Assembly (NCBI GenBank): GCA_938031175.1
Contig: CALHGZ010000004.1
Span: 317,635 to 381,634 of the forward strand
DNA: 64,000 bases
Origin: Candidatus Kapaibacterium sp.
Lineage (GTDB): Bacteria > Bacteroidota > Ignavibacteria > Kapaibacteriales > UBA2268
Reading direction: 5' to 3'
The number at the start of each line of letters is the position of its first letter. Positions within the stretch are counted from its first letter, which is position 1. Under the pieces are notes generated by a model. It worked only from the letters and a program-made list of their open reading frames with translations, had not been told where the DNA came from and did no database searches. Made by a program: the position numbers and the translations under genes. Below, one piece after another: positions 30,239-33,596 of the stretch.

Positions 30239-31810
30239 TTATTGACGAGGAATTAATTCAACCACAGGTATTATAATTTCCTCCAGTGAAATACCACCAT
30301 GTTGGAAACTATCTCTATAACGTTGTAAGTAAAAGTGATAATCAGTTGGATAGACAAAATAGTAGTCTTCTTTTGCAATGATATTACTGACAGTAATGCC
30401 CTGACGAGGAATTTTATATTTTTCGGGGTCGCTTATCTGCATTGCAAATTTAGAATCGGCTTTTACATTTTTCCCAAATTTATATCTTAAGCAAGTGCTT
30501 GTATCTCGGTCACCAAGTACTTTGGCACCTCTTAGACATCTAATTGAACCGTGGTCAGTAGTTAATAATATTTTAATATTCTCAATTTTTGAGAGTGTTT
30601 TAAAAATGCTGAAAAGGCTTGAATGTTGGAACCAGGAGCGAGTTAAGGAACGGTATGCTGATTCATCAGGAGCTATTTCTTTTAAAATTGCAAAGTCTGA
30701 ACGTGAATGGGCTATCATATCAACAGCATTTATAACGATAACATTTATTTGATTTGATAAATATTGCAGAATTTCACGTTCAATTTTTTTCCCAAATTCT
30801 GTTTCGAAAATTTTTATAAATCCGGGTTTTGTACTTAAACTAATTCTTTTTCTTTTTAGCCAGCTTTCAAAAAGTTCGCTTTCATAAGCATTTTGCTTAT
30901 GATCTTCACTATTTGAGTCAACAGTCCAAAATTGCGGGTAATATTTTTTTATATCGAGTGGAGTTAAACCGGCAAAAATTGAATTGCGGGCATAGGGTGT
31001 TGCTGTAGGAAGGATTGAATAATAATAATTTGTTTTGAATGTATAAAATGGGTTGAGAATCTCCTGCATCATTAGCCATTGATCTAATCTCAGGCAATCA
31101 ATAACGAAAAAGAATATATTACTTTTTGAATTAATTAATGGTAAAAGATAATTATCTGTTAGCTGGTGTGATAATATAGGACCAGTATCATAGTTATTTA
31201 TCCAGTCAAAGTATTTTTCTTCGATATATTTGCAAAATGAAGTGTTGCATTCCTTCCACAAATCATTGAGGCTTTGACTTAATCCGCTATCGGAAATTTT
31301 ATCTAACTCGATAGACCAGTTAACCAATTTTGTATAGATTTCAATCCAATCTTCCCAATCAGGAAATTGCATAATTTGAGCATTAATTTCAGCAAATCCT
31401 TTGAGGTAACTTTGTATAAAGTGTTCACTTTCGATGCGACCGGCTTCGAGAAATTTTTTGCAAACAGCTAGTATTTGGGCAGGGTTTACAGGTTTTGTAA
31501 GGTAATCGTCGATTTTTTTGCCAATGGCTTCTTCCATAACTAATTCAGCTTCATTTTTTGTAACCATTACGACAGGAGTTAATTTGTCAATTTCTTTAAG
31601 TAAGGGAAGAGTTTCCAAACCGCTGATACCAACCATCATTTCATCGAGGAAAATTAAGTCGTAGTGCTGTTTTTTAACCATTTCCAAAGCATCTTCTCCG
31701 TTTGTAGCTTTGTCAACATAATATCCCCTTTGCTCGAGTAGCATAATGTGTGGTTTGAGTAGTTCAATCTCATCGTCAATCCAGAGAATTTTATTTTTAG
31801 TCTGTTCCAT
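30239..31810 (-). CDS. porX: PorX-type response regulator with PglZ phosphodiesterase domain
   Basis: A 523-residue two-domain regulator. Residues 1-125 are a CheY-like receiver: WIDDE acidic pair near 11-13, phosphoacceptor Asp56 in LIFLDEMMVG, and Lys106 in LTKPVNP. A helical linker follows (about 125-205). The C-terminal PglZ domain (alkaline-phosphatase fold) has FFVIDCLRLDQW (Asp238), SILPTATPYARNSIFAG (Thr271 as the nucleophile-like residue), VINAVDMIAHSRSD and LTTDHGSIR. PorX in Bacteroidota controls type IX secretion with the kinase PorY and the sigma factor SigP, and its PglZ domain cuts oligonucleotides. No porY or sigP is adjacent. The presence of type IX cargo genes in this window fits. 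Confidence 0.93.
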   Translation of the reverse strand: MEQTKNKILWIDDEIELLKPHIMLLEQRGYYVDKATNGEDALEMVKKQHYDLIFLDEMMVGISGLETLPLLKEIDKLTPVVMVTKNEAELVMEEAIGKKIDDYLTKPVNPAQILAVCKKFLEAGRIESEHFIQSYLKGFAEINAQIMQFPDWEDWIEIYTKLVNWSIELDKISDSGLSQSLNDLWKECNTSFCKYIEEKYFDWINNYDTGPILSHQLTDNYLLPLINSKSNIFFFVIDCLRLDQWLMMQEILNPFYTFKTNYYYSILPTATPYARNSIFAGLTPLDIKKYYPQFWTVDSNSEDHKQNAYESELFESWLKRKRISLSTKPGFIKIFETEFGKKIEREILQYLSNQINVIVINAVDMIAHSRSDFAILKEIAPDESAYRSLTRSWFQHSSLFSIFKTLSKIENIKILLTTDHGSIRCLRGAKVLGDRDTSTCLRYKFGKNVKADSKFAMQISDPEKYKIPRQGITVSNIIAKEDYYFVYPTDYHFYLQRYRDSFQHGGISLEEIIIPVVELIPRQ

Positions 31811-31898: not shown

Positions 31899-31928
31899 TT
31901 GACAAATTAATTCATCGTTTATTATAAT
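31899..31928 (+). promoter_or_regulatory. Sigma-70-type promoter of the clpB-like gene
   Basis: TTGACA at 31899-31904, an 18-nt spacer, and TATAAT at 31923-31928: both hexamers match the sigma-70 consensus fully. Transcription would start near 31935, about 55 bp before the ATG at 31989, which has AAGGAG (31977-31982) in front. A 10-bp palindrome, CTAAGCTTAG (31958-31967), lies in the untranslated leader. Confidence 0.6.
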
Positions 31929-31988
31929 TAAAAATTAATTAATTAATAATGACGTCTCTAAGCTTAGTTAAAAATTAAGGAGTACATT

Positions 31989-33302
31989 ATGAATTTTCAG
32001 AAATTTACATTAAAATCACAGGAAGCTATTCAAACAGCTCAAGAAATTGCAGCATCTTATGATAATCAAGCAATCGAACCAGCACATCTTTTCGCAGCAT
32101 TAATTCAGGATACATCAGGTTTGGCAAGCGAAATGCTAATGAAAGCTGGTCTAAATTTGAATTATGCAAAAATAAAAGCTAATGAATTGATCGAGGGATT
32201 ACCTAAAGTATCGGGAACTGGAATTTCGGGACAATATTTTTCTAATACTCTTGGAAAAGTTTTAGAGCATGCTTTAAAAGAAGCAAATGCCTTAAAAGAT
32301 GAATACATTAGCATTGAACACTTGCTAATTGCATTAATTGAAATCCATTCTAATGTATCTCAATTTTTAAAATCTCAAGGACTTAATCGGGAAAGCATTT
32401 TGAGAATTATGCAGGAATTTCGAGGAACCCGACGAGTAACCGATCAAACACCAGAGGAAAAATACCAGGCATTGAAAAAGTATGGAAGAATTCTCAACGA
32501 TGAAGCAAAAAAAGGTAAACTTGACCCAGTTATTGGTAGAGAAGACGAAATAAGAAGAGTTTTACAAGTGCTTTCCCGACGAAAGAAGAATAATCCAGTA
32601 TTAATTGGAGATCCCGGTGTAGGGAAAACGGCTGTTGTAGAGGGAATAGCACACAGGATAGTATCCGGCGACGTACCGGATATGCTTAGAACTAAGCAGA
32701 TCGTCGCACTCGATATGGGGGCATTAGTTGCAGGAACAAGCTTTAGAGGACAGTTTGAAGAAAGACTTAAGGCTGTGATAAATGAGGTAACAGAATCTAA
32801 TGGCGAAATAATTTTATTTATTGATGAATTGCACACTTTAATAGGTGCTGGCTCGGCTGGCCAAGGCACTATGGATGCTGCAAATATTCTCAAACCAGCT
32901 CTTGCACGAGGTGATTTGCATTGCATTGGAGCTACAACGCTTGACGAATATCAAAAATATATTGAAAAAGATCCTGCATTAGAACGAAGATTTCAAAAAG
33001 TTCTGATTGAACCACCTTCAGTACAGGATACAATTTCGATTTTGCGTGGATTGAAAGACCGATATGAAGTACATCACGGCGTACGTATTACTGATGCTGC
33101 ATTAATCGCAGCTGCTGAACTTTCCGATAGATATATTTCAGATAGGTTTTTACCTGATAAAGCAATTGATTTAGTAGATGAAGCAGCAAGCAAACTTAGA
33201 ATTGAGATTGACTCGATGCCCGAAGAATTAGATTCTATTGAAAGGAAAATCCGGCAACTGGAAATTGAAAAACAAGCTCTTATAAGAGAAATTGCAGGTT
33301 GA
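31989..33302 (+). pseudogene. clpB: Truncated ClpB: N-domain and first AAA+ domain only
   Basis: A 437-residue reading frame that matches the first half of ClpB, a disaggregase normally about 860 residues long. Present: the repeat N-domain (about 1-145), NBD1 with Walker A GDPGVGKT (207-214), Walker B ILFIDE (275-280), the arginine-finger ERRF (332-335), and [23 protein letters not shown]. The frame stops at residue 437, about 30 residues into the coiled-coil middle domain; NBD2 is absent. The 70 bp after the stop are non-coding and the next gene follows. NBD2 is needed for stable hexamers in the family, so disaggregase activity is unlikely. Everything before the stop is well conserved and has a good promoter and ribosome binding site, so this is a recent deletion, an assembly join, or a kept short form. 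Confidence 0.8.
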
Positions 33303-33374
33303 TTATACAAATGCTTTTTGATTAAATATAATTAAATTATTATATTAATTTTGTTTTATTTTTTATTGTGCTAA

Positions 33375-33596
33375 ATGATTGTTTTAACAAAAATAGACGG
33401 GACTGAGATTGTTGTAAATGCTGATGAAATTGAGACTATTGATCCATTCCATCATTCAACGATTAGTCTTAAGAGTGGCAAAAAAATTATCGTAACAGAA
33501 AATGCAAATGACATTATTGAAAAAGTGATTGAATATAAAAGAAAATGCTTTTCAGAAATCTTATTGAAAATCCCACAAATAAAAGATAATGAATAG
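33375..33596 (+). CDS. FlbD-family protein
   Basis: A 73-residue protein with the FlbD pattern: MIVLTKIDGTEIVVNADEIE, then TISLKSGKKIIV and DIIEKVIEYKRK. FlbD-family proteins are small beta-rich proteins usually encoded in flagellar clusters between motor or hook genes; their exact role is not settled. No flagellar gene is visible within this window. Its last 8 bp overlap the next gene, an outer-membrane-like protein. It begins 72 bp after the truncated clpB. Confidence 0.78.
   Translation: MIVLTKIDGTEIVVNADEIETIDPFHHSTISLKSGKKIIVTENANDIIEKVIEYKRKCFSEILLKIPQIKDNE

What the first reader, a model, noticed from the sequence alone, without database searches (positions are those of the whole stretch)
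31989..33374. clpB cut to N-domain plus first ATPase domain, with a clean upstream promoter
The 437-residue frame is well conserved ClpB up to about 30 residues into the middle domain and then stops; NBD2 is absent and the next 70 bp are non-coding. The promoter (TTGACA, 18 bp, TATAAT) and AAGGAG are intact. An old pseudogene would have decayed in the conserved part, so this is a fresh deletion, an assembly join between clpB copies, or a retained short form that could act on full-length ClpB or hold unfolded protein.
Basis: partly seen in the sequence, partly recalled or inferred. Interest (0 to 1): 0.6.

Follow-up and report, generated by a model that had tools for sequence, protein, structure and literature searches.

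The report
ClpB chaperone split between two genes
This bacterium makes the protein-rescuing machine ClpB, normally one long chain, as two separate proteins from two distant genes, as do most relatives examined in its order and the green sulfur bacteria examined; the short gene is a conserved half of a machine and not a damaged copy.

Summary
The short clpB is real, but neither a fresh deletion nor an assembly join. The 437-aa frame (31989-33302) is the first half of a ClpB made as two proteins. The other half (rest of the M domain plus NBD2, 442 aa) lies on another contig of the same genome; no full-length ClpB was found. Of 61 genomes (60 relatives and this one), 56 carry the N half, none in a frame over 497 aa, and 53 carry both halves. 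In the class, short frames fill whole families (54 short, 78 long, 2 unclear, of 134). They also occur in families bearing the FMO protein of green sulfur bacteria (11 of 11 genomes tested). The break falls between E. coli ClpB residues 432 and 435, inside M-domain motif 1. Both halves keep their ATPase motifs, show purifying selection in relatives and are conserved like fused ClpB. Best reading: the halves co-assemble into a normal two-ring disaggregase. Binding and activity are inferred. Engineered ClpB pieces cut elsewhere are reported to work in trans (PMC7343390, passage). Seven searches of open-access papers aimed at it turned up no natural split.

The parts
31899..31928 (+). sigma-70-type promoter TTGACA-18-TATAAT upstream of clpB-N
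   Evidence: exact pattern match
31977..31982 (+). ribosome-binding site AAGGAG
   Evidence: exact match
31989..33302 (+). clpB-N: N domain, NBD1 and the first helix of the M domain; 437 aa plus stop
   Evidence: ORF; TIGR03346 positions 1-427; Clp_N, AAA and AAA_lid_9; short frame in 56 of 56 N halves among 61 genomes
33219..33290 (+). codons 411-434: last helix, first strand of M-domain motif 1; proposed docking site for the C half
   Evidence: predicted helix 389-436; as conserved in split as in fused ClpB, 0.837 against 0.842; ends at E. coli residue 432
33291..33302 (+). three-residue variable tail and TGA stop: the break. The other half is outside the window at G000:C9:39076-40404, minus strand (L033:1477-2805, minus)
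   Evidence: tail of 1-15 residues in 81 of 82 short frames held, some of them the same gene under two loci; C half starts at E. coli residue 435

Best explanation
The gene encodes the N-terminal half of a two-piece ClpB. A second, unlinked gene encodes the rest of the coiled-coil M domain, the segment that returns to NBD1, and NBD2. The two proteins most likely pair one-to-one: the last helix of the N half rebuilds the motif 1 hairpin with the first helix of the C half, and the C half's post-M segment packs on NBD1. Six such pairs would form the usual two-ring disaggregase that works with DnaK. Shown here: two conserved genes, a shared break site, intact ATPase motifs, purifying selection, unchanged constraint. 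Inferred: binding, hexamer, disaggregation.
For: The two frames abut in ClpB coordinates, model 1-427 and 430-849, E. coli 432 and 435, and no full-length ClpB was found. Both halves occur in 53 of 61 genomes of the family and order, and in 41 of the 43 that are at least 95% complete, the other 2 having neither (sorted by eye). ATPase motifs are kept in 36 N and 38 C halves. dN/dS is 0.013-0.125 in the 11 of 20 comparisons that give a value. C/N distance ratios and conservation by domain are close to those of fused ClpB. Predicted models match ClpB structures, with lowest confidence where the partner should pack. Engineered Thermus ClpB pieces are reported to work in trans (passages of PMC7343390 and PMC4239642).
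Against: Some genomes show one half only: G010, G022, G031 (N), G030 (C), G188, G231, G284, G288 (C), mostly in assemblies of over 100 contigs, yet G188 and G288 are rated 99-100% complete. No shared heat-shock operator was found. The reported trans-acting pieces were cut at another place, after the M domain. Low model confidence may also come from the small alignments.
Confidence: 0.85

Rival explanations
1. The N half works mainly on its own, as a holdase or regulator, and the C half has a separate job; they no longer form one machine.
For: Unlinked genes without a shared operator; a few genomes show only one half.
Against: The terminal helix of the N half and the NBD1-return segment of the C half, useful only as contacts, are as conserved as in fused ClpB or nearly so (0.837 against 0.842; 0.835 against 0.875). 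Presence and absence go together in all 43 genomes at least 95% complete.
Confidence: 0.1
2. One ancient split before green sulfur bacteria and this class parted, followed by re-fusion in the lineages that now have full-length ClpB (a rival on history, not on function).
For: The AU test does not reject all split rows as one clade, p 0.146; the C-half tree needs 2 changes and its starred branches force only 1.
Against: The joint tree needs 3 changes and its starred branches force 2. Fused rows of families f11, f12, f13, f14, f17 and f19 keep a junction spacing of 41 residues, as do a KSB1 and a Calditrichia row and E. coli (counted); re-fusion of two unlinked genes would hardly restore it.
Confidence: 0.25
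3. The halves are joined after all, by a split intein or by trans-splicing.
For: None found; it would restore one chain.
Against: The N half ends 1-15 residues past the ClpB match in 81 of 82 frames held and the C half's match starts at its residue 8; Pfam finds no intein domain in either.
Confidence: 0.02
4. Fresh deletion, pseudogene or assembly join.
For: Only the short frame itself.
Against: The same short frame in 56 of 56 N halves among 61 genomes, in 54 of 134 matching genomes of the class, by whole families, and purifying selection in relatives.
Confidence: 0.01

Closest known systems
Full-length ClpB / Hsp104 disaggregase (TIGR03346; PDB 4d2q, 1qvr)
   Same: All domains, ATPase motifs and M domain are present between the two halves
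   Different: Two polypeptides from unlinked genes; the chain is broken between E. coli residues 432 and 435
Engineered two-piece ClpB of Thermus thermophilus (Beinker et al. 2005, not read; cited in PMC7343390 and PMC4239642, passages)
   Same: Reported to be reconstituted in trans from separate proteins
   Different: Laboratory construct, cut after the M domain (NTD-NBD1-MD plus NBD2); the natural cut leaves most of the M domain with NBD2
E. coli ClpB motif 1 variants, E432A and deletion of E410-Y455 (PMC4023160, passages)
   Same: Same spot of the M domain: E432 is the last matched residue of the N half
   Different: Point change (repressed) or deletion (hyperactive, toxic) in one chain, not a break
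UniProt ClpB 1 and ClpB 2 of Chlorobaculum tepidum (recalled, from no call)
   Same: Two entries of about 440 aa, probably the two halves
   Different: As I recall, labelled like two ClpB proteins and not as halves of one; unverified here

Membership tests
ClpB | N domain and NBD1 with ClpB-type sequence | tested here: met
   TIGR03346 653.7 bits over positions 1-427; Clp_N and AAA; G207, G210-T214, D279, E280, R333 and R334 invariant in 36 split N halves
ClpB | Long coiled-coil M domain | tested here: met
   Carried by the C half: alignment to E. coli from residue 435, predicted helices 3-64 and 68-97; its first helix is at the end of the N half
ClpB | NBD2 with Walker A, Walker B, pore loop and arginine finger | tested here: met
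   AAA_2 and ClpB_D2-small; G181, G184, G186, K187, T188, Y229, D253, E254 and R339 invariant in 38 C halves
ClpB | One chain of about 850-880 aa above the family cut-off | tested here: not met
   Two frames of 437 and 442 aa with 652.7 and 613.5 bits, each under 1232.1
ClpB | Hexamer that rescues aggregated protein together with DnaK | not testable with these tools
   Needs purified proteins
ClpC | Short M domain and ClpP-binding loop | tested here: not met
   Only the M domain was tested: the C half aligns with E. coli ClpB from its residue 8, with ClpC only from residue 45 or later. A separate 848-aa ClpC-like gene exists. The ClpP loop was not examined
Split intein | Intein halves at the break | tested here: not met
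   No room at the ends and no intein domain in Pfam

The most novel reading that the evidence does not exclude
Splitting ClpB at its regulatory hairpin is an adaptation reached independently, at the same residue, in green sulfur bacteria and in Kapabacteria-like bacteria. Two loose chain ends in motif 1 would change the head-to-tail M-domain brake, and two separately controlled genes would let the cell set the amount of active disaggregase by the scarcer half.
Probability: 0.2. Interest if true: 0.78.

Novelty: new variant of a known kind. Interest (0 to 1): 0.6.

Why it matters
ClpB is usually studied as one chain whose two ATPase rings and M domain communicate through covalent links. Natural groups that run it as two proteins give a ready-made test of which links matter. 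They also show how gene surveys can miss it: a 2007 survey called one Chlorobium species the only Chlorobi species containing ClpB (PMC1887533, passage). The break lies in motif 1, a known control element, so the regulation of disaggregases becomes testable in natural variants.

Tried and rejected
Fresh deletion or assembly join: rejected by relatives. A full-length copy elsewhere: none found. Frameshift or read-through joining the halves: rejected for this genome, since they lie on different contigs with 72 bp to the next gene. One other genome, G238, has the two parts in overlapping frames; I read that as a simple frameshift and left it out of the split and fused labels. Shared heat-shock operator: one CIRCE site in the genome, at neither half; none of 84 N and 52 C upstream stretches had fewer than 6 CIRCE mismatches, and sigma-32-like sites had at least 3. 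Origin by tandem duplication: only hinted at in G215, where the C half lies about 11.6 kb upstream of the N half on the same strand; not pursued.

My first pattern for the junction motif was wrong (3 of 77 rows). Corrected, it matched 44 of 77 full-length rows. The 33 misses are 13 rows with long loops (spacing 48-55), 18 with spacing 38 or 44 or none found, and 2 with spacing 41 (L085, L188). I rely on the spacing alone. Several of the 77 rows are the same gene held under two loci.

Trees: the 62 rows are genomes for which I held both halves or a fused gene; 19 genomes with one half fetched were dropped. The trees are quick searches with SH-aLRT support only, and the chosen outgroup was not one side of any branch in the joint tree. 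The AU test of the split rows of this class as one clade gave p 0.74, the held tree scoring better than the free one. The distance and conservation comparison used 33 of the 37 split rows; f16, f18 and f20 were not in its groups.

Full report
What is there. The window (G000:C4:317635-381634) holds a 437-aa frame at 31989-33302. It matches the ClpB model over positions 1-427 of 853 with 653.7 bits, and Pfam finds Clp_N, AAA and AAA_lid_9.

The missing half. Searching the same genome with TIGR03346 gives, besides the window gene and a ClpC-like protein on C8 (848 aa), a match over model positions 430-849 on contig C9, and one weak match (23.7 bits) of an unrelated ATPase. The C9 frame is a 442-aa ORF (L033:1477-2805 minus, that is G000:C9:39076-40404) with AAA_2 and ClpB_D2-small. 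No full-length ClpB was found; the genome is rated 97% complete. Against E. coli ClpB (PDB 4d2q) the window protein's match ends at residue 432 and the C9 protein's starts at 435. So the genome encodes all of ClpB in two unlinked pieces that abut.

Relatives. Of 61 genomes (60 of the same family and order, plus this one), 56 have an N half, none in a frame over 497 aa; 54 have a C half, in frames of 438-572 aa, in contig-end pieces, or in one case in two frames (G037). Both are present in 53, N only in 3 (G010, G022, G031), C only in 1 (G030), neither in 4 (G001, G025, G026, G036). I sorted these by eye, setting aside frames that belong to ClpC. Among the 43 genomes at least 95% complete, 41 have both and 2 (G026, G036) neither; by bare counting that pattern has a chance of 1 in 903, but relatives are not independent. 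Against a strict rule, in the wider sample G188 (rated 100% complete, 130 contigs), G231, G284 and G288 show the C half only, and G122 and G166 show a whole N half but only part of a C half.

How far it reaches. In a sample of 149 genomes of the class, 134 matched at E 1e-150 or better. I counted 54 short frames (at most 515 aa): 20 in the window's order, 4 in family f16, 11 in f18, 10 in f20 and 9 in f54. There are 78 long frames (774 aa or more), all in other families, and 2 unclear ones (G300, G296). The 15 without a match include G036 and G188 and members of both kinds of family. For f54, and for most genomes of f16, f18 and f20, only the N frame was seen; a separate C half was confirmed in G180, G215, G256 and G230. 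In the phylum sample of 247 genomes, short frames also occur in families f24, f26 and f39 wherever a frame is printed; the list was cut off. The FMO protein PF02327, which I recall as a mark of green sulfur bacteria, is found in 11 of 11 of their genomes tested, in 0 of 5 others and in 0 of 14 control genomes. Of 80 named loci (the best 80 of 570 relatives), 29 have short frames, 50 long ones, and 1 is cut by its contig. Short ones include the records titled Candidatus Kapaibacterium or Kapabacteria, long ones Rhodothermus, Balneolaceae, Stygiobacter and most Melioribacter; but MAG titles are mixed, and some titled Ignavibacteria, one Melioribacter roseus and one Bradyrhizobiaceae have the short form.

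Same place in sister genomes. The window's neighbour PorX (30239-31810) has a relative beside the N half in 8 loci (L041, L042, L052, L054, L088, L099, L102, L169) and FlbD in 4 (L041, L042, L052, L054), out of the named and fetched loci searched, many with short flanks; one fused locus (L051) has a partial 37% match to PorX over 117 aa. The name PorX is recalled from its make-up, not searched.

Anatomy of the break. N halves end in a sequence like [17 protein letters not shown] plus a short variable tail; C halves begin with a short stretch and then the next M-domain helix. Motif 1 of the E. coli M domain spans E410-Y455 (PMC4023160, passage), so the cut lies inside motif 1, just past E432. 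The same passages place E432A and Y503D at opposite ends of the coiled coil, call E432A repressed, and describe the motif 1 deletion as hyperactive and toxic. The predicted N half ends in a helix 389-436 (mean pLDDT 80.1); the C half begins with M-domain helices 3-64 and 68-97 (mean pLDDT 84.9). Confidence is lowest at about 381-410 of the N half and 101-130 of the C half, the segment that returns to NBD1; that fits a missing partner but may also reflect the small alignments. Both models match ClpB structures (1qvr for C, TM 0.76; 6w6j for N, TM 0.76), and ClpC as well.

Function kept. In 36 split N halves G207, G210-T214 (Walker A), D279, E280 (Walker B) and R333/R334 are invariant; in 38 C halves G181, G184, G186-T188, Y229, D253, E254 and R339 are. 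dN/dS is 0.013-0.125 in 11 of 20 comparisons; the other 9 are saturated at silent sites, including all four with this genome, where pN is 0.16-0.22 against pS 0.78-0.83. C/N distance ratios are 1.30 (22 order rows) and 1.41 (11 green sulfur rows) against 1.32 (17) and 1.30 (7) in fused ClpB. Conservation by domain is close: N domain 0.609 against 0.634, NBD1 0.871 and 0.871, last helix 0.837 against 0.842, M domain 0.626 against 0.639, NBD1-return 0.835 against 0.875, NBD2 0.736 against 0.758; the first 11 residues of the C half are looser, 0.533 against 0.690. The halves evolve nearly as if still one protein.

One origin or several. On the joint tree of 62 genomes (37 split, 24 fused, 1 frameshifted) the label needs 3 changes, starred branches forcing 2; the N tree gives 3 and 2, the C tree 2 and 1. 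The AU test does not reject all split rows as one clade (p 0.146), nor the split rows of this class as one clade (p 0.74). At the junction, 46 of 77 full-length rows (some the same gene twice) have 41 residues from the LEIE motif to the tryptophan, including the rows of f11, f12, f13, f14, f17 and f19 and one KSB1 and one Calditrichia row; 16 have 38, 13 have 48-55, 1 has 44, and 1 was not found. E. coli also has 41, counted. The two f15 rows have 50, and the fused rows of the other classes in the tree have 38 or were not found, so the spacing does vary without a split. I favour two or more independent breaks at one place, but this is not settled.

Mechanism proposed. Each N half pairs with one C half through the motif 1 hairpin and the completion of NBD1, and six pairs form the two-ring machine. 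That separate ClpB pieces can work in trans was reported for engineered proteins cut after the M domain (Beinker 2005, not read; stated in PMC7343390 and referred to in the introduction of PMC4239642, passages). The natural cut is at another place, so this is support by analogy.

Literature. Ten searches of the held open-access library were made, seven aimed at a natural split and three at related work. From listings and passages I saw no paper describing a natural two-gene ClpB; 'split ClpB' has 0 papers. I saw passages of PMC1175084, PMC1887533, PMC12283024, PMC4239642, PMC4023160, PMC5540906 and PMC7343390 and listings of the rest. Most subscription papers are not held. I recall two ClpB entries of about 440 aa for Chlorobaculum tepidum in UniProt, so the genes may be annotated without being known as halves.

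Noticed in passing
G036 (same order, family f2; rated 100% complete, 20 contigs): Only ClpC-like matches; neither half of ClpB was found.
   Followed up: partly
L204 (G238:C1:1161500-1170000): clpB of a single-contig genome in an otherwise fused family is broken by a frameshift near the same junction, the two frames overlapping; an error or a recent mutation.
   Followed up: partly
L199 (G215:C4:276500-295500): The C half lies about 11.6 kb upstream of the N half on the same strand, the order that loss of opposite halves from a tandem duplicate would leave.
   Followed up: no
G130:C1:1687396-1687998: The FMO match covers only model positions 1-202 and lies in an open frame of 3524 aa, odd for a gene of about 360 aa.
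   Followed up: no
L168 (G037:C1:982000-989000): The C half is broken into two frames, while a genome of the same genus (G053) has it whole.
   Followed up: partly
G000:C4:109450-109476: The only CIRCE-like site of the genome within 3 mismatches, a perfect one; the gene behind it was not examined.
   Followed up: no
window 33375-33596: A 73-aa FlbD-family protein (flagellar and swarming motility) follows clpB-N; a relative lies beside the N half in four other loci.
   Followed up: partly
named full-length loci such as L046, L051, L061, L066, L077: Some fused ClpB have a loop 7-14 residues longer at the very spot where others are split.
   Followed up: partly
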